A program made the translations under genes and the position numbers. Below, one piece after another: positions 398 through 14,567 of a stretch of DNA of 64,000 bases (within the stretch, counting starts at the first letter, position 1; the number at the start of each line of letters is the position of its first letter). Under the pieces are notes generated by a model. The model did not search any database. It was not told the DNA's origin and saw nothing but the letters and a program-made list of their open reading frames with translations. The stretch comes from Streptomyces sp. ICBB 8177 (GTDB lineage: Bacteria > Actinomycetota > Actinomycetes > Streptomycetales > Streptomycetaceae). Location: assembly GCF_003144095.1 (NCBI RefSeq), contig NZ_NSKH01000018.1, positions 379,965 to 443,964 of the forward strand, given 5' to 3'.

Positions 398-3603
<3,206 letters not shown>

Positions 3604-4170
3604 AACGTGTGGAGTCCTTCCTTGACGGCACGGACGTCGTGGTCCGTGCCCAGCAGCTCGAATCGGTACAGCAGCGGCACGCCGCACTTCGCCGCGATCA
3701 CACGGCCCGCGAGGCAGTAGTCCGCGCCGAAGTTGGTGTTGCCGGAGGCGATCACACCGCGCAGCAGGGCCCGGTCGGCCGGGTCGTTGAGGAAACGCGC
3801 GACCTGCCGGGGCACCGCGCTCGCGGGGTCGCCGCCGCCGTAGGTGGGCACGATCAGCACGTACGGCCCGGTGGCGTGCGGCAGGGGATCGCGGTGCGGG
3901 TGCACCGGGGTGCGCGTGGCGGGCATGCCGAGGCGTTCGACGAAGCGCTTGGTGTTCTCCGAGACGCTGGAGAAGTACACGAGGCCGCCCAACGTCCGCC
4001 TCCTCTCCTCGTTCCCTTCCGGTGTCCGGGTCGGGAGAGGGGGAGCGGCGGCGGGTACGGAAGGCACCGGTGCGGCGGCACGACGGCACGCCGGACCGTC
4101 AAGTCCGTACGACGGCCACGCGGCCCTCCCTCGGGGCCCCGGAGCGCGTACGCCGCCGCGCGGCGCACGC

Positions 4171-4366
4171 ACCGGTGGCAGGTCTTCGGACTCGCGGGCG
4201 TGTCCGTCGTTACGGACGCCTACTGGCCGTCGCTTCCCGGGCCCGTCGGACCCAGTGCGTGATGACGGCGGTCGTTCCCGCTCACCGCTGCGGGGCAGTC
4301 CCGGATTCCCACCGGGTTCCCTCTTGCCTCGCCGGACACGGGGAGCATCCGGCGAACCACCAGCAC
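4171..4366 (-). ncRNA. Cobalamin riboswitch in the nrdIEF leader
   Basis: On the minus strand the core reads GGGAACCCGGTGGGAATC, then CCCCGCAGCGGT, a CACTGG element, AAGCGACGGCCAGTAGG and the B12-box-like GAGTCCGAAGACCTGCC. These occur in the order and spacing of the cobalamin riboswitch. The pairing that closes the aptamer involves about 4171-4180 and 4355-4366. The nrdI start is 179 nt downstream. Cobalamin riboswitches normally reduce expression when B12 is plentiful. In S. coelicolor a B12 riboswitch is known on the class I nrdABS operon; here it precedes nrdIEF. Confidence 0.95.
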
Positions 4367-4371
4367 GTCCA

Positions 4372-4387
4372 ACACTACATCTGGATC
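4372..4387 (-). promoter_or_regulatory. NrdR box 1
   Basis: ACACTACATCTGGAT matches the NrdR box pattern (ACACwAtATCt...). It overlaps a minus-strand TAGTGT (4372-4377) that could be the -10 element, with transcription starting just before the riboswitch. It is paired with a second box whose start is 31 bp away, which is the helical spacing typical of NrdR-controlled promoters. Confidence 0.75.
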
Positions 4388-4402
4388 GGCATGGCTTCGT
4401 CC

Positions 4403-4418
4403 ACCCCAGATGTTGTGT
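4403..4418 (-). promoter_or_regulatory. NrdR box 2
   Basis: On the minus strand this reads ACACAACATCTGGGG, the same core as box 1 in inverted orientation. The two boxes start exactly 31 bp apart. NrdR is the global repressor of ribonucleotide reductase operons, so this supports control of nrdIEF by NrdR in addition to the riboswitch. Confidence 0.75.
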
Positions 4419-4428
4419 TTCGTCAAAT

Positions 4429-4446
4429 ACTTAGGTATACCTAAGT
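4429..4446. promoter_or_regulatory. Perfect 18-bp palindrome with DtxR-family-like half-sites
   Basis: The sequence acttaggtatacctaagt is a perfect 18-bp palindrome, 11 bp upstream of NrdR box 2 on the nrdIEF side. The half-sites TTAGGT and ACCTAA are those of DtxR/IdeR/MntR metal-dependent repressors, but the spacing is 2 bp rather than the 7 bp of the 19-bp iron box. It may therefore bind another member of the family, such as an MntR-like protein. The repressor is inferred, not seen. Confidence 0.5.
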
Positions 4447-4607
4447 TCGGCCTTGGGGGTGGGTACTCCTTCCTGGGGGGCCAGGGGTCCCGCACCGACC
4501 CCGCAGGGTCAACTCCAGCTCGTCGCGGCCGGGTTCACGGCCGCCGACGCGGTGTGAGCCTGCGAACAGCGGGCTCCAGAGCTCTGGTCGCGGGATCAGG
4601 GGCCCGG

Positions 4608-4613
4608 TAGGTT
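4608..4613 (+). promoter_or_regulatory. Candidate -10 box for the 4.8-kb gene
   Basis: TAGGTT fits the actinomycete -10 consensus TAnnnT. It lies 13 bp before the 5' end of the cobalamin aptamer, which would put transcription start at the edge of the riboswitch. I do not see a clear -35 box. Confidence 0.4.
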
Positions 4614-4626
4614 GTCGGCGCAATCG

Positions 4627-4723
4627 CTTCAGGCGGCAGGGGAAGCCGGTGGGATTCCGGCGCTGTCCCGCAACCGTGTGTCCTCCCTCGGGTGGACGAG
4701 TCGGATCACCTTCCCCGCCTGGA
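4627..4723 (+). ncRNA. Cobalamin riboswitch upstream of the first HWGG-domain gene
   Basis: The core GGGGAAGCCGGTGGGATTCC followed by CTGTCCCGCAACCGTGTG, then GACGAGTCGGATCACCTTCC, is the compact cobalamin riboswitch layout without a long peripheral arm. Terminal pairing joins CTTCAGGCGG (4627-4636) with CCGCCTGGA (4715-4723). Core and spacing are nearly identical to the riboswitch at 8191-8290, which suggests that the two leaders share an ancestor. Confidence 0.9.
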
Positions 4724-4787
4724 CCCGTGGAACAGCCGAACGCCGTCGTGGACTGCGGCGTGGCCCTGGCAGACACCCGCGTGTCCG

Positions 4788-4823
4788 CCTGTCGCCGCGC
4801 CCGCGTCCGCGGAGGCCGACAGG
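4788..4823 (+). promoter_or_regulatory. Hairpin next to the ribosome binding site
   Basis: CCTGTCG (4788-4794) can pair with CGACAGG (4817-4823). The second arm runs into the AGGGAGGGG ribosome binding site (4821-4829) of the downstream gene. A riboswitch-controlled switch of translation initiation is plausible; this is inference from pairing alone. Confidence 0.4.
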
Positions 4824-4835
4824 GAGGGGCACAGC

Positions 4836-5399
4836 ATGACCAGGGGCAAGCGGACGGGAGCCGGCAGACACCGGTCGGTCAGAACCGTCGCGGGCGCGGC
4901 GGCCGCGCTCGCCACGCTCGGCGCGACGGCGGTGGGCACGGCCGCACCGGCCTCGGCGTCACCGATCTCCAGCTGCACGGCCACCAAGGGCGCGGTCGTC
5001 GCCGTCGACTTCGGCCACTGGGGTGGCCCCGTGGTGCGCGGCTGCGACGCCAGCCCCACCACCGGCTACAACCTGCTGCACAACGGTGGGTTCACCACGA
5101 CCGGCACACAGCACGACGGCCCCGGCTTCATCTGCCGCATCGGCAACTCCGCGTTCAGCGGCGGCACCCAGTACCCGACGCCCGCGCAGGACGCCTGTGT
5201 CAACACCCCGCCGGCTTCCGCCTACTGGTCGTACTGGATCGCGCCCAAGGGCCAGACGACCTGGACCTACAGCCCGCTCGGCGCCATGAGCGACGTGCCG
5301 AAGGCCGGTGAGGTCGAGGCGTGGACCTTCGGCAGCACGGACATCAACGGCACGACCGGACAGCCGGACTTCACCCCCGCCTCGGTCCGGGCCAGCTGA
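4836..5399 (+). CDS. Secreted HWGG-domain protein (SCO2322-like), short paralogue
   Basis: Exported protein of 187 aa. An Arg/Lys-rich start, a hydrophobic Ala-rich stretch and an APASASP cleavage region give a signal peptide of about 42 residues. The mature part is one domain with VDFGHWGG, FICRIG, YPTPAQDAC, ASAYWSYW and a WTY motif, plus several Cys likely to form disulfides. The same domain forms the first half of the protein at 9928, but this copy lacks the linker and membrane anchor and so should be freely secreted. From memory, such proteins are labelled SCO2322 family in Streptomyces and travel with ECF transporter genes; no biochemical function is known to me. The ATG at 4836 has AGGGAGGGG upstream. 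A cobalamin riboswitch in its leader points to a role in B12 acquisition. Confidence 0.85.
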   Translation: MTRGKRTGAGRHRSVRTVAGAAAALATLGATAVGTAAPASASPISSCTATKGAVVAVDFGHWGGPVVRGCDASPTTGYNLLHNGGFTTTGTQHDGPGFICRIGNSAFSGGTQYPTPAQDACVNTPPASAYWSYWIAPKGQTTWTYSPLGAMSDVPKAGEVEAWTFGSTDINGTTGQPDFTPASVRAS

Positions 5400-5415
5400 G
5401 GGACCCGAGGGCTGA

Positions 5416-5453
5416 CGTGGCGCCGCGGCAGAGCAGCCTGCTGCGGCGTCACG
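5416..5453 (+). terminator. Hairpin after the HWGG gene
   Basis: A 16-bp stem with two G-U pairs (5416-5431 with 5438-5453) and a 6-nt loop lies 17 bp after the stop codon. It probably ends or attenuates the riboswitch transcript before the next gene, which has its own promoter. Confidence 0.6.
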
Positions 5454-5485
5454 CCAGCCGGGCGCCCTCGGCCGAGGGCTGCGCC

Positions 5486-5491
5486 TAGGCT
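5486..5491 (+). promoter_or_regulatory. -10 box of a leaderless promoter
   Basis: TAGGCT ends 6 bp before the ATG at 5498 and no ribosome binding site is visible, so transcription probably begins at or next to the start codon. Confidence 0.5.
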
Positions 5492-5497
5492 GGCGGT

Positions 5498-6430
5498 ATG
5501 CGTATCGTCTCGCTCCTGCCGGCCGCGACCGACCTGGTCGCCGACCTCGGACTCGCCGGGAACCTGACCGGCCGGACACACGAGTGCGACTGGCCCGCCG
5601 AGGCGCTGCGCACGGTCCCCGTGGTGACCGCCTCCGGTATCGACGCCGCGCGGATGAGCAGCCGGGAGATCTCCGAGGCGGTGGGCGGCGCCACCCACCA
5701 CGGGTCCTCGCTGTACTCACTCGACGCCGGGGCGCTGGCCCGGGCCGCGCCGTCGGTGGTCCTCACCCAGGACCTGTGCGACGTGTGCGCGGTCTCGTAC
5801 GAGAGCGTCTCGCGCGCGGTGCGGGTGCTGGACGCGGACACGCGGGTCATCAGTCTGGAGCCGCGCACCCTGGACGAGGTGCTGGGCTGCCTGCGGCAGG
5901 TCGGCGAGGCGCTGGGGGTCGCGCGGACCGCGGTGCGGCGGGAGGCGGTGTGGCGGGAGCGGCTCACCGCGGTCGGCGCCTCGGTGGCGGGCCGGCGTCG
6001 TCCACGGGTGGCGGCGGTGGAGTGGCTCGACCCGTTGTGGCCCGCCGGGCACTGGGTGCCGGACCAGGTGCGCTGGGCGGGCGGCGAACCGCTGCTCGCC
6101 GCGCCCGGAGAACACACCGGCCCCATGACCTGGGAGCGGTTGCGGGACGCACGGCCGGACGTCGTGGTGTTGATGCCCTGTGGCTTCGAGCCCGCGCGCA
6201 CGGAGGCGGAGTACGGGCTGCTGCGCGCGCTGCCCGGGTGGGGTGACCTGCCCGCGGTGCGCTCGGGCGAGGTGTGGGTGGTGGACGGACCGGCTCACTT
6301 CAACCGGCCGGGTCCGCGCGTGGTGCGAGGCGCCGAGATCCTGGCGTACGTCCTGCACGGCGTCCAGCCGCCGCTGCCCGTCACCCGGGACGAGGCGCGG
6401 CGGCTGGAACCCGCAGGCGGAGAAGGGTAG
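5498..6430 (+). CDS. BtuF-like cobalamin-binding protein without signal peptide
   Basis: 310-aa protein of the periplasmic-binding-protein fold family that includes BtuF. The N-terminus [12 protein letters not shown] is the start of the mature fold itself, so no signal peptide or lipobox is present. Family motifs are THECDWP near residue 27, TQDLCDVC near 90 and VVVLMPCGF near 220. Members that lack a signal peptide are widespread and are usually annotated cobalamin-binding protein, with unclear location and role. The gene sits between two riboswitch-controlled gene groups for B12 capture, which supports corrinoid binding. It appears to be transcribed from its own leaderless promoter. Export by a non-classical route or a cytoplasmic role are both open. 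Confidence 0.85.
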
Positions 6431-6465
6431 TTCGGTCGCAGAACCGAACGAACCGATCGGTGGCG

Positions 6466-7893
6466 CTAGTTGACGTACCGCAGCGCGATGGTGTCGCCCG
6501 CGCGTATGCGCTGTCCGGCGGTGGCCGGCACGGACGGCGAGCCGTCGACGCTGACCTGCCAGCCCGAACTGCCGTTCACGACATGGCCGTCGGCGGCGGG
6601 CAGCTGTCCCGGCAGGCCCGAGCCGCCGCACCCGGCGGGCGTGGCGTGCGCGGCGGCGGCCGACACCACGGCGCCGAGCGTGACGGTGGCGGCGGTGGGC
6701 GTCACGGTCACGGAGCACAGGCCGGGGGCACCGCTCGGGCCGTCGACGGCGACCGCCAGATCGCTGGGACTCCCGGGCGTGAAGCCCGTCACGCCTTCCC
6801 ACCGGGGTTGCCCCGGGGTGACCGGACGCGGCGCAGGTGCGGTGAACCCCGCACCTGCGAGGGCGCGCAGGGCGTCGATGGAGGAGTACGGCGTCGGCGA
6901 GGTGTCCCCGGGCTGGTAACGGAAGCCGCCGCCGGGGGTGAACTGCTGGGCGAGCAGGAAGTCCACCGGAGTCCTGCCCGCCGTACTGGTGAAGTCATGA
7001 CCCTGCGCCGCGATGCCGCAGGCGTTGAGGCCGGAGACCGCCCAGGCGTTGGAGTCGGTGTTGGCGCCGTACGGGGAGTCGAAGGCGCCGGAGGCGGCGA
7101 GGAGCTTTCCCGCGAGGAACTTCTCGCCCGCCTTCACCGCGGGGTCCGTCCTGGGTACGCCCACGGTGCACAGCGCCGCCATCGTGGCGCCGGTCATGTC
7201 GATGTCGCTGGGTGCGGCGAGGGCCTGGGGGTCATCGGCGGCCTGGCTGTAGTCCCAGCCTCCATCGGTGTGTTCGTTGGCGCGGACGGCGTCGACGGAG
7301 GCGCCGAGCAGCCACTGCGGCACCCGCGGCGCCCCGGTCGTCGTGCGGGCTCCGCCGAGCGCCAGCAGGGCGAAGACGGTGCCGTTGAAGTTCGACGGAG
7401 GACCGAAGTACCCGGGGGCGGACGGCTGCCAGGCGGCGGCGATCTCCGCTATCAGGTTGCGGCCCGCGCTGACCCGGGCGGGGTCGATGCCCGCGGCGTA
7501 GGCGTTGAGCGCGGCCCGTTCGTAGTCGGTGACCACAGGAGCGGAGCCGAACCAGTCGGGCTGGGACAGTTGCGCGCGGTAGACGGCGCGGGCGTTCTTC
7601 GCGGGCGCGCCCGCCGGGGCGAGGTCGGCGGCCGCCACCCCGGCGGCGGCCAGCGCGCTGAACGCCCACTCGTTCGACAGCCCGCCGCCACTGGCGAAGC
7701 TCCCGTCCGAGCCCTGGAGCTGGGAGACGTAGGTGACCGCGCGGGCACGGGCGGCGGCTATCGATCCCGGGGGCGAGGTCGCGACGGCCGGTGTCGCGCC
7801 GGCGAGGGTCGCGACGGCCGCGGCCAGTACCGCGACGACACGGGCACGACGGCCGGGTCTGCCCGCCGAACGGGCTGTTGCTCTGGCTGACAT
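6466..7893 (-). CDS. Secreted transcobalamin/intrinsic-factor-like protein
   Basis: Exported protein of 475 aa. Residues 1-38 form a signal peptide (RRAR, Ala/Val-rich core, PAVA). Residues about 45-350 are a repeated alpha-helical domain with motifs such as SDGSFASGG, TDGGWDYSQ and PGGGFRYQPGD, the pattern of alpha6/alpha6 barrels in prenyltransferases, squalene cyclases and the transcobalamin family. The last 95 residues look like the small beta domain of transcobalamin/intrinsic factor (DUF4430-like), ending GWQVSVDGSPSVPA and RAGDTIALRYVN. This two-domain order is that of the animal B12 carriers. A cobalamin riboswitch lies in its leader and the gene is divergent from the ECF operon, so I infer an extracellular corrinoid-binding protein. 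No cyclase DxDD motif is seen, which argues against a terpene cyclase. Confidence 0.8.
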   Translation of the reverse strand: MSARATARSAGRPGRRARVVAVLAAAVATLAGATPAVATSPPGSIAAARARAVTYVSQLQGSDGSFASGGGLSNEWAFSALAAAGVAAADLAPAGAPAKNARAVYRAQLSQPDWFGSAPVVTDYERAALNAYAAGIDPARVSAGRNLIAEIAAAWQPSAPGYFGPPSNFNGTVFALLALGGARTTTGAPRVPQWLLGASVDAVRANEHTDGGWDYSQAADDPQALAAPSDIDMTGATMAALCTVGVPRTDPAVKAGEKFLAGKLLAASGAFDSPYGANTDSNAWAVSGLNACGIAAQGHDFTSTAGRTPVDFLLAQQFTPGGGFRYQPGDTSPTPYSSIDALRALAGAGFTAPAPRPVTPGQPRWEGVTGFTPGSPSDLAVAVDGPSGAPGLCSVTVTPTAATVTLGAVVSAAAAHATPAGCGGSGLPGQLPAADGHVVNGSSGWQVSVDGSPSVPATAGQRIRAGDTIALRYVN

Positions 7894-7992
7894 GGGGAGT
7901 CCTCCGGTGGGGGCGACGCCGCCACCCCGTCCGCGGAACCCCGCCGATGAGGCGGTCGCCGCCCGATCGCGTGGTCAGGCTTCCGCTGGTGC

Positions 7993-8089
7993 CGCGTCGC
8001 CGGGCGGGCATCCGGGCTCGGCCGGGACACGGCCACACCGTTGCGCCTCAGCCCTGGGCTCGCACCAGGTTCCCCCGCATGGCGACGCG
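7993..8089 (-). ncRNA. Cobalamin riboswitch upstream of the transcobalamin-like gene
   Basis: On the minus strand GGGGGAACCTGGTGCGAGCC, then GCGCAACGGTG and CCGAGCCCGGATGCCCGCC follow the cobalamin aptamer order. A 9-bp closing stem pairs 8081-8089 with 7993-8001. Some core positions deviate (GAGGCGCAACGG for the usual CCCGCAACGG), so it is a slightly degenerate member. The start codon is 100 nt downstream. Confidence 0.82.
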
Positions 8090-8092
8090 CTG

Positions 8093-8121
8093 ACGCTAGC
8101 CAGGGCTTCGGCCCGCGTCCA
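8093..8121 (-). promoter_or_regulatory. Promoter for the minus-strand riboswitch transcript
   Basis: On the minus strand TGGACG (8116-8121) and TAGCGT (8093-8098) are separated by 17 bp. The predicted start falls at the 5' end of the aptamer. Confidence 0.5.
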
Positions 8122-8175
8122 GTGACGGCGGTCACGTCGGGTAGTCCGTTGACTTCCGAAATGACGTCGTGCTCC

Positions 8176-8181
8176 TATGAT
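8176..8181 (+). promoter_or_regulatory. Candidate -10 box of the ECF operon
   Basis: TATGAT is a near-consensus -10 element 9 bp before the riboswitch. The best-looking -35 (TTGACT, 8149-8154) is 21 bp away, which is too far, so the -35 is uncertain. Confidence 0.45.
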
Positions 8182-8190
8182 GTGATTTCG

Positions 8191-8290
8191 CTTCAGGTCC
8201 ATAGCGCAGGGGAAGCCGGTCGAAGTCCGGCGCTGACCCGCAACCGTAGGCCCACCTCGGGGTGGGCGAGCCGGAACACCTGCCCTGGAG
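8191..8290 (+). ncRNA. Cobalamin riboswitch upstream of the ECF transporter operon
   Basis: The core reads GGGGAAGCCGGTCGAAGTCC, CTGACCCGCAACCGTAGG and GGCGAGCCGGAACACCTGCC. Closing pairing joins CTTCAGG (8191-8197) with CCTGGAG (8284-8290). The layout matches the riboswitch at 4627-4723. It is followed by a hairpin that covers the ribosome binding site. Confidence 0.92.
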
Positions 8291-8358
8291 CCACTGAACA
8301 CCGTTCGCCGTCGAGGTCCGCGGCGCGGAAGTGAACGGCCCGGCCCCGCCGGTCCGTT

Positions 8359-8391
8359 CCCCTCTGCCTGCCCTCACGGCCGGCAGAGGGG
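8359..8391 (+). promoter_or_regulatory. Hairpin sequestering the ribosome binding site
   Basis: CCCCTCTGCC (8359-8368) pairs perfectly with GGCAGAGGGG (8382-8391). The second arm contains most of the GAGGGGG ribosome binding site used by the ATG at 8399. This is the expected form of a translational expression platform for the preceding riboswitch. Confidence 0.65.
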
Positions 8392-8398
8392 GTCTTGG

Positions 8399-9928
8399 AT
8401 GAACGGCATCACGGGCGGCCTGCGCAGACGCGCCGCGACGGTCGGCGCCGCGGCGGTCGTGCTCCTCGTCACCACAGGTGGATTCGTCCCGCCCGCGCTC
8501 GCCGCCGCCCAGCCGTCCGGCACGGCCTCGCCCGCCCCGGCCGTCCCCACGACCGCAGTTCCCTCCGTGTCCGCTTCGGCCTCCGCGTCCTCCTCGGCCT
8601 CCGCACCCGCCGCCGTGCCGCCGGTGACCGGGCCTTCGTCGAGCGCGCAGAGCTCCGCCGCCACCGCGAAATCACCGAACCTCACCAAGGGCACCGACTA
8701 CCTGGTCGCCTCCTCCCGGCTCATCGGCGGCCACTACTACGACGCCTACCCGGGTGTGGACTTCGCCGACTACGGCATGACGATCGACGGCGCCTTCGCA
8801 CTCGCCGCGACCGGCCGCGACGACGCGGCGCTGAAGAAGATCGTCGCCTTCTTCCAGAGCCAGGGCAAGGACGGCTCCAGCCGGTCGGTCAACGACTGGA
8901 CCGGCATCGGCACCGCGTACGCGGGCGGCGGCTCCCTCGGCAAGGAAGCGCTCCTCGCCGAGGTGGTCGGCGCCGACCCGCGCGCCTTCGGCGGTCACGA
9001 CCTGATCGCCGCCCTGGACAAGGCGGTGTGCGCCAAGGCGAGCACCGGGACCGACACCAGCTGCGCGGCGCCCGGCAACTACACGTACGCCACCTCGGTG
9101 TTCTCCCAGGCTCTCGGCATCATGGCGCAGATCCGCGCGGGCGACGGCGCCTCCGCGACCGCGCCCGTGAAGTACCTGGAGAGCCTCCAGCACAGCGACG
9201 GCTCCTGGCCGAGCCTGATCCCGGCCACCGGCGACTCCGACGTGGACAGCACCGCCATGGCCGTAATGGCGCTCGCCCTCGTGCACGGCGACGCGGCCTC
9301 CGCCGCCGTGGACCGCGGCGTGCGGTGGATCGCCGCGCAGCAGGAGAAGGACGGCGGCTTCCCCGGCGCGTCCGGTGATTCGACCAACTCCGCCGCGCTC
9401 GCCGTCCAGGGCATGACCCTGCGCAAGAGCACCTACTCCGGGCAGATCGCGCGGGCGCTGGCGTTCCTCGCCGCGCAGCAGAACAGCGACGGCGGCTTCA
9501 ACGTCGCCTCCTCCGGACAGCGTGGCTCCGACGTGCGCGCCTCCACCCAGGTGGTCAGCGGGGCGACCGGGATATCCTTCGGCACCCTGGAACGCGACCT
9601 CTCGGGCAAGCCCGCGCCCACCTCCTCGGCGTCCGCCGCCCCGACCGCCACCGCGACCCTGTCGGCCGGGCCCACCCCGAGCATCAGCACGATCGGCGGC
9701 GCGGGAACCGGCGCTTCGTCAACCAACGTCCTCGCCAACGCTGTTGGGGACGACACGTCGGACGGCGGACTCGGCGGCGTGCTCGCCCACACCGGCACCG
9801 ACGCACGCGGCGAGGCCGAACTCGCGGCGCTCCTGCTGCTCGTCGGCGCCGCGGCCGTCGCCGTCGGCCGCCACCGCTTCCGCCGGACGCCCGGACAGGG
9901 CGCCATCGCGGAAGGACGGCACCGCTGA
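8399..9928 (+). CDS. Cell-wall-anchored transcobalamin-like alpha/alpha-barrel protein
   Basis: Exported protein of 509 aa. Residues 1-35 form a signal peptide ending PALA; a Ser/Ala/Pro-rich spacer runs to about 95. Residues about 95-385 are a repeated alpha-helical domain with HYYDAYPGVDFADYGMT, QHSDGSWPS, KDGGFPGA and SDGGFNVA, again the alpha6/alpha6 barrel of transcobalamin and prenyltransferase relatives. A Thr/Ser/Pro-rich stretch follows, then LAHTG at 462-466, a hydrophobic segment and a basic tail. LAxTG is the motif used by the class E sortases of streptomycetes, so the protein is probably linked to the wall. It lacks the C-terminal beta domain of the 6466 protein. It is first in the riboswitch-controlled operon that encodes an ECF transporter, and I infer that it captures corrinoids at the surface. 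Confidence 0.82.
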   Translation: MNGITGGLRRRAATVGAAAVVLLVTTGGFVPPALAAAQPSGTASPAPAVPTTAVPSVSASASASSSASAPAAVPPVTGPSSSAQSSAATAKSPNLTKGTDYLVASSRLIGGHYYDAYPGVDFADYGMTIDGAFALAATGRDDAALKKIVAFFQSQGKDGSSRSVNDWTGIGTAYAGGGSLGKEALLAEVVGADPRAFGGHDLIAALDKAVCAKASTGTDTSCAAPGNYTYATSVFSQALGIMAQIRAGDGASATAPVKYLESLQHSDGSWPSLIPATGDSDVDSTAMAVMALALVHGDAASAAVDRGVRWIAAQQEKDGGFPGASGDSTNSAALAVQGMTLRKSTYSGQIARALAFLAAQQNSDGGFNVASSGQRGSDVRASTQVVSGATGISFGTLERDLSGKPAPTSSASAAPTATATLSAGPTPSISTIGGAGTGASSTNVLANAVGDDTSDGGLGGVLAHTGTDARGEAELAALLLLVGAAAVAVGRHRFRRTPGQGAIAEGRHR

Positions 9929-10827
9929 TGCGCCGACCGGCCGCCCTGCTCGGGGCCGGCGCGCTCACCGGCCTCGCGGCCTTCACCGGCCTCGGCGTCA
10001 CCGCGACACCCGCCGTGGCCGCCGCCGAGCCGATGAGCCTCTGCACCACCACCAGCGGTGTCGTGCTCGCCGTGGACTTCGGCCACTGGGGAGGCCCGAT
10101 CCTGCGCGCCTGCGGTACCACACCCACCACCGGGTACGACCTGCTGAACGAGGGAGGCTGGCGCACCACCGGCGACCAGCACGACGGTCCCGCGTTCATC
10201 TGCCGCATCGGCTACAGCGGTTACCAAGGCGGCGCGCAGTACCCGACCCCGGCGCAGGACCCCTGCGTGGTCACGCCACCGGCGTCCGCCTACTGGTCCT
10301 ACTGGCATGCCGACCCCGGCCAGAACACCTGGACCTACAGCCAGCTCGGCGCGATGAGCTATCACCCCGAGCCCGGCAGCGTCGACCTGTGGATCTTCGG
10401 CGGCACCAACATCGCGGGCACCGAGGGCCGCCCCGCGTACTCGCCCGACCTCCTGCGCGCCCACAACACCGCGCCCACCGGTCCGACCGCCCCCGCCACG
10501 CAGGGCTCCGGATCCACGGGCGGGAGTACCGGCGGCCGGACGGGCAGCGCACCGCACGCGCCCGCCGGCGGCGGTGCGACGTCGCCGAGTCCGAGCGCGA
10601 GGGCCAAGCCGTCGGGCTCCGCGTCGGCGTCCGCCTCGGTCTCGGCACCGGCGAGCGGCGCGGACGTCTCACGTCCTCCCACGACACGGGTCGTGGACGC
10701 CGTGCCCGCACCGCCCGCCAAGCGGTCCAGCGGCTCCGGCGTGGCGACCGTGGTCGCCATCGCGCTCGGGGCGTCCCTGGCCGCGGCGGCCGGTGTGACG
10801 ACGTGGCGCAGGCGACGAGCGGGCTGA
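9928..10827 (+). CDS. Membrane-anchored HWGG-domain protein (SCO2322-like)
   Basis: 299-aa exported protein. A signal peptide (about 1-34) is followed by the HWGG domain (35-175: VDFGHWGG, FICRIG, YPTPAQDPC, ASAYWSYW, WTY), the domain also found in the 4836 protein. A Ser/Gly/Thr/Pro-rich linker (about 180-270) and one C-terminal transmembrane segment with a RRRR tail follow. The topology puts the domain outside the membrane on a flexible stalk. Its ATG overlaps the stop of the upstream gene (TGATG), so the two are translationally coupled. It lies between the surface alpha/alpha-barrel protein and the ECF transporter, so it may pass the ligand to the membrane complex. This is inferred from context only. 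Confidence 0.85.
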   Translation: MRRPAALLGAGALTGLAAFTGLGVTATPAVAAAEPMSLCTTTSGVVLAVDFGHWGGPILRACGTTPTTGYDLLNEGGWRTTGDQHDGPAFICRIGYSGYQGGAQYPTPAQDPCVVTPPASAYWSYWHADPGQNTWTYSQLGAMSYHPEPGSVDLWIFGGTNIAGTEGRPAYSPDLLRAHNTAPTGPTAPATQGSGSTGGSTGGRTGSAPHAPAGGGATSPSPSARAKPSGSASASASVSAPASGADVSRPPTTRVVDAVPAPPAKRSSGSGVATVVAIALGASLAAAAGVTTWRRRRAG

Positions 10828-10831
10828 GCCG

Positions 10832-12013
10832 GTGCCCGTACGCCACCCCGCCGTCGCCGCACTGAGCAGCAGCGCCCGGCCGCCGCGCAACCTGCACCCG
10901 GTGGCCTGGTGGATCTGGGCCGCCGGTCTGGCGACCGCCGCCAGCCGCACCACCAACCCCCTGCTGCTCCTGCTGGTGTTCGCGGTCCTCGGCTACGTGG
11001 TCACCGTCCGCCGCACCGACGCGCCCTGGGCCCGCGGCTTCCCGTACTACCTGTGGCTGGCGCTGACCGTGATCGCCATCCGTGTGGTCTTCCGCGTCGT
11101 CTTCGAAAGCGGTGTCACACCGGCCGACCACATCATGTTCACCCTGCCGCACCTCCCCACGCCGCGCTGGTACGCGGGCATCCAGATCGGCGGCCCCGTG
11201 TCACTGGAGGCCGCGCTGTCCGCCGCCTTCGACGGGCTGCGCCTGGCCTGCCTGATGTGCTGCGTCGGCGCCGCCAACACCCTGGCCAACCCCAAGCGCG
11301 CCCTGCGCGTGCTGCCCGGCGCGCTCTACGAACTGGGCGTGGCCGTCACCGTGTCCCTGAGCGTCGCGCCCCAGCTCATCGAGTCCGTCCAGCGGGTGCG
11401 GCGGGCCCGCAGGCTGCGCGCCGGGAACACCAAGGGCCTGCGCGCAGTACGCGGCATCGTCGTCCCGGTCCTGGAGGACGCGCTGGAACGCTCCCTCGCG
11501 CTGGCCGCCGCCATGGACTCGCGCGGCTACGGCCGCTCCGGCACCGCGACCCGCGCCTCCCGCCGCCTCACCGGGGCGTTGATGCTGCTGGGGATGCTGG
11601 GACTGTGCACCGGTGTGTACGGGCTGCTCGACGGCACCACACCCCGCCTGCTCGGGCTGCCCGCCCTGCTGGCCGGAGCCGTGCTGTGCGGCGCGGGACT
11701 GATGACGGGAGGCCGCCGGGTGCGTCGCACCGGATACCGGCCCGACCCCTGGCTCGCCCCGGAGTGGATCACCGCCGGATGCGGTGTCGTGGTGGCGGTG
11801 ACGCTCTTCGCGTCCACCGGCTACAGCGCCACCCAGCTCAACCCCAGCCTTTATCCGCTGAGTTGGCCGCCCCTGCCGCTGGTCCCCTCCGCCGCGATCC
11901 TGCTGGCCGCCGTCGCGGGCCTCGCGGCGCCGCGTCCCGCGGCCGTTCCTGGGCCCGCACCGGGGGCCGCCCTTCCCGCCTCGCCCGACACACCGACGGA
12001 GACCGCCGCGTGA
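10832..12013 (+). CDS. ECF transporter transmembrane subunit EcfT
   Basis: 393-aa integral membrane protein of the CbiQ/EcfT family, the scaffold that couples the ATPases to the substrate-binding S subunit. Several hydrophobic segments are visible between residues 25 and 320. The two short cytoplasmic coupling motifs of the family are present as RRARRLR and MDSRGYGR. The start is GTG at 10832, 5 bp after the preceding stop. The C-terminal tail is Ala/Pro-rich. The gene is followed by a GTGA overlap with the fused ATPase gene. With the next two genes it makes a complete dedicated (group I) ECF transporter; corrinoid as the substrate is inferred from the riboswitch. Confidence 0.9.
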   Translation: MPVRHPAVAALSSSARPPRNLHPVAWWIWAAGLATAASRTTNPLLLLLVFAVLGYVVTVRRTDAPWARGFPYYLWLALTVIAIRVVFRVVFESGVTPADHIMFTLPHLPTPRWYAGIQIGGPVSLEAALSAAFDGLRLACLMCCVGAANTLANPKRALRVLPGALYELGVAVTVSLSVAPQLIESVQRVRRARRLRAGNTKGLRAVRGIVVPVLEDALERSLALAAAMDSRGYGRSGTATRASRRLTGALMLLGMLGLCTGVYGLLDGTTPRLLGLPALLAGAVLCGAGLMTGGRRVRRTGYRPDPWLAPEWITAGCGVVVAVTLFASTGYSATQLNPSLYPLSWPPLPLVPSAAILLAAVAGLAAPRPAAVPGPAPGAALPASPDTPTETAA

Positions 12014-13713
12014 TCCGCTTCGACCACGTCACCGTCACCTACGACGGAGAGCCGGAACCCGTGCTGCGCGACGTGGACCTGCGCGTCGAGGAGGGCGAAC
12101 TGTGCCTCGTCGTCGGCCGCACCGGCGTGGGCAAGTCCACTCTGCTGGGCACGGTCAACGGCCTGGTCCCGCACTTCACCGGCGGGACCCTCGCCGGACG
12201 GGTCGTCGTCGACGGCAGGGACACCGCCCACCATCCGCCGCGCGAACTCGCCGACGTGGTCGGGGTGGTCGGCCAGGACCCCCTGGCCGGATTCGTCACC
12301 GACACGGTGGAGGAGGAACTCGCCTACGTCATGGAGCAGTTGGCGGTCCCACCGCAGGTGATGCGCAAGCGGGTGGAGGAGACCCTCGACCTGCTCGGCC
12401 TGGCCGACCTGCGCCACCGCGCCCTGCGCGAACTCTCCGGCGGCCAGCAGCAGCGCGTCGCGATCGGCTCCGTGCTCACGGCGCACCCGCGCGTCCTGAT
12501 CCTGGACGAGCCCACCTCCGCGCTCGACCCGACCGCCGCGGAGGACGTCCTCGCCGCCGTCACCCGCCTCGTCCACGACCTCGGCGTCACCGTGCTGCTG
12601 GCCGAACACCGCCTGGAGCGCGTCGTGCAGTACGCCGACCGCATCGTGCACCTCACCGGGGACGGCACTGTCGAGGACGGGCCCGCGCGGCAGATCTTCC
12701 GCACCGCCTCCGTGGCCCCGCCCGTGGTCGACCTCGGACGGCTCGCCGGATGGGATCCCCTGCCGATGTCGGTACGCGACGCACGCCGTATGGCGGCCCC
12801 TCTGCGCCGCCGCCTGGAGTCGGCACCCGCACCTCGGCCCCCGTCCGGCCCGAAGACCGGCGACCCTCTTCTCACCGCACGCGGCGTGCTCGTGCGCTAT
12901 GGGCCCACGGTCGCCGTCGCGGGTGTCGACACCGTGCTGCACGGCGGCGAGGTCGTGGCGCTGATGGGCCGCAACGGTTCCGGCAAGTCCTCGCTGCTGT
13001 GGGCCTTGCAGGGCTCGGGGCCGAGGCAGGGCGGCACGGTCAAGGTCAGCGGCACGCTCCCCGCACGAAACGGCGAAGGGCACCACGACCCCGGGAAGCT
13101 CGCCCCCGGCGCCGCGCGCACCCTGGTGGGCCTGGTCCCGCAGACCCCCACCGACCTGCTGTACCTGGACTCGGTGGGGGCCGAACTCGCCCAGGCGGAC
13201 CGGGAATCGGCCACCACGGCCGAGGAGGCCACCCGGGGGAAGCCCGCCGACCCGGGTCGGCCGTCCGCCCGCGCGTTGCTCGACCGGATCGCGCCCGGCA
13301 TCGGCGACGCCGTGCACCCCCGCGACCTGTCGGAGGGCCAGAAGCTCTCCCTGGTCCTCGCCATCCAGCTCGCCGCCACACCACGTGTCGTCCTGCTCGA
13401 CGAGCCGACGCGGGGCCTGGACTACCAGGCGAAGACCGCGCTGATCGCGATCGTGCGGTCGCTGGCGGCGGAGGGGCGAGCCGTGGTGGTCTCGACGCAC
13501 GACGTCGAGTTCGTGGCGTCCTGCGCCGACCGCGTCGTCGTCATGGCCGAGGGCGAGGTGGTGGCCGACGGGCCCACGGCCGACATCGTGGTGTCGTCCC
13601 CCGCGTTCGCCCCCCAGACGGCGAAGATCCTCAGCCCGCTCGCTTACTTGACGCCTCATCAAGTCGCGGCCGCACTGGCCGCGTTGCCCGCGTCGGCGGG
13701 GGAGGAGCGGTGA
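12010..13713 (+). CDS. ECF transporter ATPase, fused A-A' protein
   Basis: 567-aa protein with two complete ABC ATPase domains in tandem, equivalent to EcfA and EcfA'. The first has Walker A GRTGVGKST, signature LSGGQQQR and Walker B VLILDEPTSALD. The second, after a linker near residues 240-285, has Walker A GRNGSGKSS, a modified signature LSEGQKLS and Walker B VVLLDEPTRGLD. A Gly/Ala/Pro-rich insertion lies in the second domain. The GTG start at 12010 overlaps the ecfT stop; an open frame further upstream is a shadow of ecfT. It powers the transporter at the cytoplasmic face of the membrane. Confidence 0.93.
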   Translation: MIRFDHVTVTYDGEPEPVLRDVDLRVEEGELCLVVGRTGVGKSTLLGTVNGLVPHFTGGTLAGRVVVDGRDTAHHPPRELADVVGVVGQDPLAGFVTDTVEEELAYVMEQLAVPPQVMRKRVEETLDLLGLADLRHRALRELSGGQQQRVAIGSVLTAHPRVLILDEPTSALDPTAAEDVLAAVTRLVHDLGVTVLLAEHRLERVVQYADRIVHLTGDGTVEDGPARQIFRTASVAPPVVDLGRLAGWDPLPMSVRDARRMAAPLRRRLESAPAPRPPSGPKTGDPLLTARGVLVRYGPTVAVAGVDTVLHGGEVVALMGRNGSGKSSLLWALQGSGPRQGGTVKVSGTLPARNGEGHHDPGKLAPGAARTLVGLVPQTPTDLLYLDSVGAELAQADRESATTAEEATRGKPADPGRPSARALLDRIAPGIGDAVHPRDLSEGQKLSLVLAIQLAATPRVVLLDEPTRGLDYQAKTALIAIVRSLAAEGRAVVVSTHDVEFVASCADRVVVMAEGEVVADGPTADIVVSSPAFAPQTAKILSPLAYLTPHQVAAALAALPASAGEER

Positions 13714-14567
13714 CGAGGAGACCCCGCACTCCGGTCGCCGTGCGCCTCCACCCCCGCGCCGCGACGGCGGCCGGACTCGCCGCGTTCGTCGGGGTGGTGG
13801 CGTTCTTCTGGCCGTTCGTCGTCGCACCGGGCAGGTTCGGCTCGTCGCTGACGCCACCGTTGATCTTCGGCAGTCTCCTCGTCCTGGTGCTCGCCGTCGT
13901 CTTCGCCGAGATCGCGGACGGCGGCATCGACTCCAAAGCCCTGGCCATGCTCGGGGTGCTGTCCGCGGTCAACGCGGCGCTGCGCCCGCTGGGCGCGGGC
14001 ACGGCCGGGGTCGAGACCGTGTTCTTCACCCTGGTGCTGGCCGGCCGGGTCTTCGGCGCTGGCTTCGGCTTCACCCTGGGATGCACCTCGCTGTTCGCGT
14101 CCGCGCTGATCACCGGCGGGGTCGGGCCGTGGATGCCGTACCAGATGTTCGGCTGCGCGTTCGTCGGCATGCTGGCGGGCTGGCTGCCGCGACTCGGCGG
14201 GCGCAAGGAGATCCTGGTGCTGGCCCTGTACGGTGCCTTCTCCGGTTACCTGTTCGGATTCCTGCTGAACCTCTCCTTCTGGCCGTTCTCCGTGGACCCG
14301 CACAGCTCGATCGCCTACCTGCCGGGCCTGCCCTTCACCCAGCAGTGGCACCGCTATCTGGCGTTCGACGCGGCGACGTCGCTGGGGTGGGACACGGGAA
14401 GGGCGGTGACGACGTTCCTGGGCGTGCTCGTCGTGGGGCCCGCGGTTCTCGGCTCCTTCCGCCGAGCCGCCCGCCGAGCCCACTTCGAGGCCCCGGTCCG
14501 CTTCGAGCCCGTGGGCGGCGAGGACTCTCAGCCGACCGGGACGGAGCGCTGGGCGGGGCCGTTGTAG
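13710..14567 (+). CDS. ECF transporter substrate-specific (S) subunit, CbrT-like
   Basis: 285-aa hydrophobic protein with about six predicted membrane segments, starting at a GTG that overlaps the ATPase stop and has GGAGGAG upstream. Its position and topology are those of an ECF S component, the subunit that binds the vitamin. The large loop with SSIAYLPGLPFTQQWHRYL and the segment GFGFTLGCTSLFASALITGGVGP resemble CbrT-type S components, which bind cobalamin and its precursors. The assignment to cobalamin relies mainly on the riboswitch at the head of the operon. The last 40 bp overlap the convergent prpC gene. Confidence 0.82.
   Translation: MTRRPRTPVAVRLHPRAATAAGLAAFVGVVAFFWPFVVAPGRFGSSLTPPLIFGSLLVLVLAVVFAEIADGGIDSKALAMLGVLSAVNAALRPLGAGTAGVETVFFTLVLAGRVFGAGFGFTLGCTSLFASALITGGVGPWMPYQMFGCAFVGMLAGWLPRLGGRKEILVLALYGAFSGYLFGFLLNLSFWPFSVDPHSSIAYLPGLPFTQQWHRYLAFDAATSLGWDTGRAVTTFLGVLVVGPAVLGSFRRAARRAHFEAPVRFEPVGGEDSQPTGTERWAGPL

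What the first reader, a model, noticed from the sequence alone, without database searches (positions are those of the whole stretch)
4171..4446. Three stacked control signals on nrdIEF: NrdR boxes, B12 riboswitch and a DtxR-like palindrome
Within 276 bp there are two NrdR boxes with starts exactly 31 bp apart, a full cobalamin riboswitch, and a perfect palindrome acttaggtatacctaagt with metal-repressor half-sites. Each would act against expression under one condition: enough dNTPs, enough B12, enough Fe or Mn. Together they would reserve a reductase that needs neither B12 nor metal for cells lacking both. B12 riboswitch and NrdR control of a class I operon are known in S. coelicolor; adding a metal signal to a class Ie operon would be new.
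Basis: partly seen in the sequence, partly recalled or inferred. Interest (0 to 1): 0.8.

Follow-up and report, generated by a model that had tools for sequence, protein, structure and literature searches.

The report
Iron, B12, dNTP controls on metal-free reductase
In a small group of Streptomyces, the genes for a DNA-building-block enzyme that needs neither metal nor vitamin B12 carry three stacked off-switches (enough dNTPs, enough B12, enough iron), and the iron switch proves to be a conserved binding site for the bacterium's master iron sensor.

Summary
A strong cobalamin riboswitch, a NrdR box pair 31 bp apart and a perfect palindrome lie upstream of a class Ie (Q/S/K) nrdIEF operon. The palindrome is the least obvious part and the best supported. 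TTAGGTATACCTAA is identical in 7 of 8 Streptomyces nrdIEF promoters, always 12 bp from NrdR box 1, while flanks are unrelated. In 395 Streptomycetaceae genomes the 14-mer occurs 70 times (about 0.1 expected): 58 adjoin iron genes and 5 are the nrdIEF promoters of all five genomes that have the operon. It equals the published 14-bp IdeR "half site" TTAGGNNNNCCTAA. The genome's only full DtxR-family hit is IdeR/DmdR1-like, so the signal is iron rather than manganese. The genome also has nrdABS (NrdR boxes, B12 riboswitch, no iron box) and nrdJ, which fits a tiered reserve: class II, then Ia, then Ie. The claim that metal control of class Ie would be new fails: MtsR (DtxR family) already represses class Ie nrdF.2IE.2 in S. 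pyogenes. New are the three-signal combination and a conserved IdeR half site at an RNR operon. DmdR1 binding and the sign of the iron effect are untested; the site lies near -72 of the inferred start, unusual for simple repression.

The parts
4429..4446 (.). 18-bp palindrome; core 4431-4444 TTAGGTATACCTAA = 14-bp single-dimer iron box (IdeR/DmdR half site)
   Evidence: consensus TTAGGNNNNCCTAA from PMC8464063
4403..4418 (-). NrdR box 1, ACACAACATCTGGGGT; starts exactly 12 bp after the iron box in all 7 species that have the iron box
4372..4387 (-). NrdR box 2, GATCCAGATGTAGTGT, start 31 bp from box 1; its end is a -10-like TAGTGT
   Evidence: the same layout precedes nrdABS in this genome
4372..4377 (-). 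Inferred -10 element TAGTGT; start site inferred near 4366
   Evidence: Sequence and comparison with TATGCT at nrdABS; not measured
4160..4376 (-). Cobalamin riboswitch aptamer RF00174, 103.4 bits
   Evidence: also in all seven other Streptomyces nrdIEF leaders
4122..4138 (-). GGCCCCGAGGGAGGGCC, an invariant 17-base hairpin-forming element in the expression platform, function unknown
   Evidence: Identical in 8 of 8 species
3534..3992 (-). nrdI, TTG start inferred from homologues
   Evidence: TIGR00333, 149.5 bits
1459..3603 (-). nrdE, class Ib/Ie R1
   Evidence: TIGR04170, 1169 bits
398..1420 (-). nrdF, class Ie QSK R2
   Evidence: PF00268, NCBIfam, ligands Q/S/K and QSK clade in the tree

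Best explanation
A three-input regulatory region restricts a metal-free class Ie reductase to cells short of dNTPs, B12 and iron. NrdR (dNTP sensor) binds two boxes over the promoter. The iron sensor DmdR1/IdeR, loaded with Fe(II), binds a single-dimer 14-bp iron box just upstream and lowers transcription. Transcripts that are made pass a cobalamin riboswitch that shuts off expression when B12 is plentiful. With class II nrdJ (B12-dependent) and class Ia nrdABS (iron-dependent; NrdR and B12 control but no iron box) in the same genome, nrdIEF would be the third reserve. Shown: the sequence elements, their conservation, the shared motif with iron genes, and the regulator's presence. Inferred: binding, sign and logic.
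For: Riboswitch 103.4 bits and in all 8 Streptomyces leaders. 14-mer identical in 7 of 8 species with a fixed 12-bp gap to box 1 amid diverged flanks. 14-mer in 69 of 395 genomes, 70 places, reversed control 0; neighbours SIP 30, SufR 14, heme oxygenase 10, FecCD/FhuF 4, nrdIEF 5, other 7 (Pfam). All 5 of the 395 genomes with this nrdF have it at the operon. Iron boxes in this genome lie at a siderophore-type dehydrogenase, an iron-binding lipoprotein, Bfd, FhuF, SIP and aconitase. In the sister genome G001 the FhuF-gene iron box contains this exact 14-mer. One full DtxR-family regulator, IdeR-like (277 bits against 31 for MntR), with primary metal ligands and DNA-contact residues kept. A single IdeR dimer binds TTAGGNNNNCCTAA with KD 78 nM (PMC8464063). 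nrdABS lacks an iron box. Iron/Mn repression of class Ie in S. pyogenes.
Against: The iron box is centred near -72 of the inferred start, whereas at siderophore-interacting-protein genes it mostly sits 20-50 nt from the start codon; simple blocking of RNA polymerase is less obvious here. No start site, binding or expression data. One species, S. abyssomicinicus (L007), has the operon without the box. Class Ie operons of other genera show no such box.
Confidence: 0.66

Rival explanations
1. DmdR1 bound at the iron box activates nrdIEF when iron is sufficient, as IdeR does at ferritin genes, so the three signals do not all act against expression.
For: Site near -72, upstream of the NrdR boxes. 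IdeR activates bfrB from boxes upstream of the promoter (PMC10317159). The first known single-dimer site is at nuo, which is iron-induced in other bacteria (PMC8464063).
Against: IdeR-activated genes tend to have several boxes; here there is one. The enzyme needs no iron, and the S. pyogenes class Ie operon is repressed by Fe and Mn. Most other genes with this 14-mer are iron-acquisition genes.
Confidence: 0.17
2. The palindrome is a manganese (MntR-type) operator.
For: Class I nrdI-nrdF2 in C. diphtheriae is MntR-regulated and not bound by DtxR (PMC13001254).
Against: The same 14-mer adjoins iron genes in 58 of 70 places; the only full DtxR-family protein found here is IdeR-like.
Confidence: 0.05
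3. The palindrome serves the divergent gene on the + strand and not nrdIEF.
For: It lies between two divergent transcripts, and the + strand gene also has a B12-riboswitch-like leader.
Against: Fixed 12-bp spacing to the NrdR box in 7 species, while sequence on the other side is unrelated and the divergent genes sampled differ.
Confidence: 0.06
4. Operator of an unrelated regulator that happens to share the sequence, or chance.
For: Seven of 70 places are not obviously at iron genes, several of them between tsaE and tsaB.
Against: About 0.1 expected against 70 found, mostly at iron genes; embedded in a 19-bp iron box in G001.
Confidence: 0.04

Closest known systems
S. pyogenes nrdF.2IE.2 (class Ie, VPK) repressed by MtsR, a DtxR-family Fe/Mn sensor (PMC6593403, PMC8463856)
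   Same: Class Ie operon under a DtxR-family metal sensor; other reductases present in the same genome
   Different: Firmicute, VPK type, gene order FIE, Mn/Fe sensor; no B12 riboswitch is mentioned in the passages read
Streptomyces nrdABS (class Ia) with NrdR boxes and a B12 riboswitch
   Same: Same order: NrdR box pair over the promoter, then a cobalamin riboswitch; present in this very genome
   Different: Metal-dependent enzyme; no iron box
IdeR half site at S. erythraea nuo (PMC8464063)
   Same: 14-bp TTAGGNNNNCCTAA, single dimer
   Different: Binding shown there; at nrdIEF inferred. Function of half sites stated to be unknown
C. diphtheriae nrdI-nrdF2 under MntR (PMC13001254)
   Same: Actinobacterial nrdI-nrdF unit under metal control
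   Different: Mn/MntR; DtxR does not bind; no B12 riboswitch is mentioned in the passages read; its class (Ib or Ie) was not tested here

Membership tests
IdeR/DmdR iron box | Match to 14-bp single-dimer consensus TTAGGNNNNCCTAA | tested here: met
   Exact, 4431-4444; consensus in PMC8464063
IdeR/DmdR iron box | Classical 19-bp double site TTAGGTTAGSCTAACCTAA | tested here: not met
   Overlapping second sites at +5 and -5 have 8 and 9 of 10 mismatches; not found by 19-mer scan with 3 mismatches
IdeR/DmdR iron box | Same motif at iron genes in this clade | tested here: met
   58 of 70 places
IdeR/DmdR iron box | Genome encodes an IdeR-type regulator with metal and DNA-contact residues | tested here: met
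   L142:1434-2126
IdeR/DmdR iron box | Iron-dependent binding and expression | not testable with these tools
   Needs gel shift and reporter
MntR operator | MntR-type regulator in genome, Mn genes sharing the motif | tested here: not met
   Only an IdeR-like full DtxR-family hit; neighbours are iron genes
Class Ie (QSK) ribonucleotide reductase | Three metal-ligand Glu replaced by Q, S, K | tested here: met
   [18 protein letters not shown] (relatives); QSK clade 100/100 apart from the EE class Ib rows
Class Ie (QSK) ribonucleotide reductase | nrdI in the operon | tested here: met
   TIGR00333 149.5 bits
Class Ie (QSK) ribonucleotide reductase | Tyr converted to DOPA, metal-free activity | not testable with these tools
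   Needs protein; shown for Gardnerella QSK (PMC11846895)
Cobalamin riboswitch RF00174 | Aptamer above curated score | tested here: met
   103.4 against 31.5
Cobalamin riboswitch RF00174 | B12-dependent repression | not testable with these tools
   Needs reporter or in-line probing
NrdR operator | Two 16-bp boxes about 31 bp apart over a promoter | tested here: met
   box 2 alone is degenerate; 3 of 8 species have 32 bp; the promoter itself is inferred

The most novel reading that the evidence does not exclude
DmdR1 and NrdR act together as one complex on this promoter: the fixed 12-bp gap (27 bp centre to centre) reflects contact between a single DmdR1 dimer and the NrdR oligomer, giving a joint iron and dNTP gate in front of a B12 riboswitch, and an answer to what IdeR half sites are for.
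Probability: 0.2. Interest if true: 0.72.

Novelty: new variant of a known kind. Interest (0 to 1): 0.55.

Why it matters
When cells use class Ie reductases is an open question (stated in PMC8463856). Here the DNA itself names conditions: low dNTP, low B12 and, most likely, low iron, in genetically tractable Streptomyces. It also gives a conserved example of an IdeR half site, whose function PMC8464063 and PMC10317159 call unresolved, and shows the 14-mer to be common at iron genes across Streptomycetaceae.

Tried and rejected
Mn/MntR reading: rejected on neighbours and regulator type. Chance palindrome: rejected. General actinobacterial trait: class Ie loci in Leucobacter, Micrococcus, Brevibacterium, Corynebacterium and others show no iron box by 19-mer or 14-mer scan of up to 4.2 kb upstream (only 251 bases in L011), bar one 1-mismatch 14-mer near Brachybacterium nrdF; an Acidimicrobiia bin (L027) has NrdR-like boxes and a B12 riboswitch but no iron box. 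Expression platform: the alignment fold gave mostly invariant or one-sided pairs and no net covariation bonus, so transcriptional or translational action cannot be told. A conserved -35 was not found by eye. The primary paper of Do et al. on MtsR is not held, so it is cited through a review.

Full report
What is there. On the - strand the window holds nrdI (3992-3534), nrdE (3603-1459) and nrdF (1420-398). NrdF has lost three metal-binding glutamates in the pattern Q, S, K, and a tree of 83 NrdF proteins places it in a QSK clade apart from the glutamate-bearing class Ib clade with full support. It is therefore a class Ie reductase of the kind characterised for Gardnerella (PMC11846895).

The three signals. 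(a) A cobalamin riboswitch, 103.4 bits. (b) A pair of NrdR boxes, 4403-4418 and 4372-4387, 31 bp apart; the second ends in a -10-like TAGTGT and is weak as a lone match but conserved in place. (c) The palindrome 4429-4446. The signals sit in the order palindrome, box 1, box 2 with promoter, riboswitch, nrdI. The start site, near 4366, is my inference; the same layout of boxes, TATGCT and riboswitch precedes nrdABS in this genome.

The palindrome is real and belongs to nrdIEF. Eight Streptomyces with this operon were compared (L008 and G350 are the same locus, counted once). In seven the 14-mer TTAGGTATACCTAA is identical and starts 26 bp before box 1, leaving exactly 12 bp between, while the spacer and the sequence beyond are unrelated. 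The eighth, S. abyssomicinicus, has boxes and riboswitch but no palindrome; it groups with S. halstedii in the tree (99/62), so one gain and one loss is likely but not firm. The divergent gene differs between the species looked at.

What binds it. In 395 Streptomycetaceae genomes the exact 14-mer occurs at 70 places in 69 genomes, with none for the reversed control and about 0.1 expected from base composition. All 70 were read: siderophore-interacting protein 30, SufR 14, heme oxygenase 10, FecCD/FhuF 4, nrdIEF 5, other 7 (Pfam names; 'SufR' is my name for an ArsR-type HTH protein, and SufB follows it in L089). All five of those genomes that carry this nrdF have the 14-mer in front of it. In this genome the classical 19-bp iron box, with up to three mismatches, occurs six times; five lie at a siderophore-type dehydrogenase, an iron-binding lipoprotein, Bfd, FhuF and SIP, and the sixth is near a ribosomal protein gene. 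A one-mismatch 14-mer lies upstream of aconitase. The FhuF-gene box is TTAGGTATAGCTAACCTAA here and TTAGGTATACCTAACCTAA in the sister genome G001, which contains the nrdIEF 14-mer whole. Marcos-Torres et al. showed that one IdeR dimer binds TTAGGNNNNCCTAA and proposed it as the true unit of the iron box, function at lone half sites unknown (PMC8464063). The genome's only full DtxR-family hit is an IdeR/DmdR1 type, far closer to IdeR than to MntR, with the DNA-contact residues (S38, P40, T41, Q44) and the primary metal ligands (M11, C103, E106, H107) kept. I conclude, at about 0.9, that this is a DmdR1 single-dimer iron box. The metal is iron.

How it most likely works. Fe-DmdR1 lowers transcription, NrdR lowers it when dNTPs suffice, and B12 closes the leader. 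The genome also has nrdABS (NrdR boxes, riboswitch, no iron box) and nrdJ (the enzyme names for these two rest on gene context, length and the Rfam nrdJ RNA, not on a full test). The arrangement fits a ladder: nrdJ with B12; nrdABS without B12 but with iron; nrdIEF without both. The weak step is the sign of the iron effect: the box is near -72, while at SIP genes it mostly lies within 20-50 nt of the start codon. IdeR can activate from upstream sites, though usually from several (PMC10317159). I put activation at 0.17.

Novelty. Metal control of a class Ie operon is known: MtsR directly represses S. pyogenes nrdF.2IE.2 (PMC6593403), and a review cites Fe and Mn repression as evidence that class Ie is a backup (PMC8463856). 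B12 riboswitch plus NrdR control of a class I operon is described in Propionibacterium acnes (PMC3848588) and, by recall, in S. coelicolor. I found no report of the triple combination or of an iron box at an actinobacterial class Ie operon in the open library; subscription papers are missing from it. This is a new variant of a known kind.

Noticed in passing
window 4640-4710 (+), 8006-8075 (-): Two further cobalamin riboswitch cores just under Rfam's cut-off (28.6 and 28.0 bits, E about 2e-4) besides the three others above it in the window; the stretch 4600-14000 looks like a B12/cobalt uptake locus (CbiQ, Peripla_BP_2, toroid-repeat secreted protein).
   Followed up: partly
window 4836-5396 (+) and 9928-10824 (+): Two related secreted proteins (VAVDFGHWGG...GTQHDGPGFICRIG-type) with no Pfam match, both within the B12-riboswitch cluster.
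   Followed up: no
L112, L171, L172, L175, L182 at the 14-mer; L150:1190-1203: The same palindrome, flanked as GGTTAGGTATACCTAACC, lies near tsaE and tsaB in five genomes; in this genome a near copy (TTAGGGTCACCTAA) precedes a 69-aa ORF without Pfam match, possibly an iron-regulated small protein.
   Followed up: partly
window 4122-4138 (-): GGCCCCGAGGGAGGGCC after the aptamer is identical in all eight nrdIEF leaders; role in the riboswitch switch unknown.
   Followed up: partly
L027:2870-3200: A class Ie nrdIEF in an Acidimicrobiia metagenome bin also has NrdR-like boxes and a B12 riboswitch but no iron box.
   Followed up: partly
L089, L103, L110 and 11 other loci: In 14 Streptomycetaceae the 14-mer abuts the start of a SufR-like regulator, divergent from an AAC(3)-like acetyltransferase gene in most of them, suggesting iron control of the suf operon.
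   Followed up: partly
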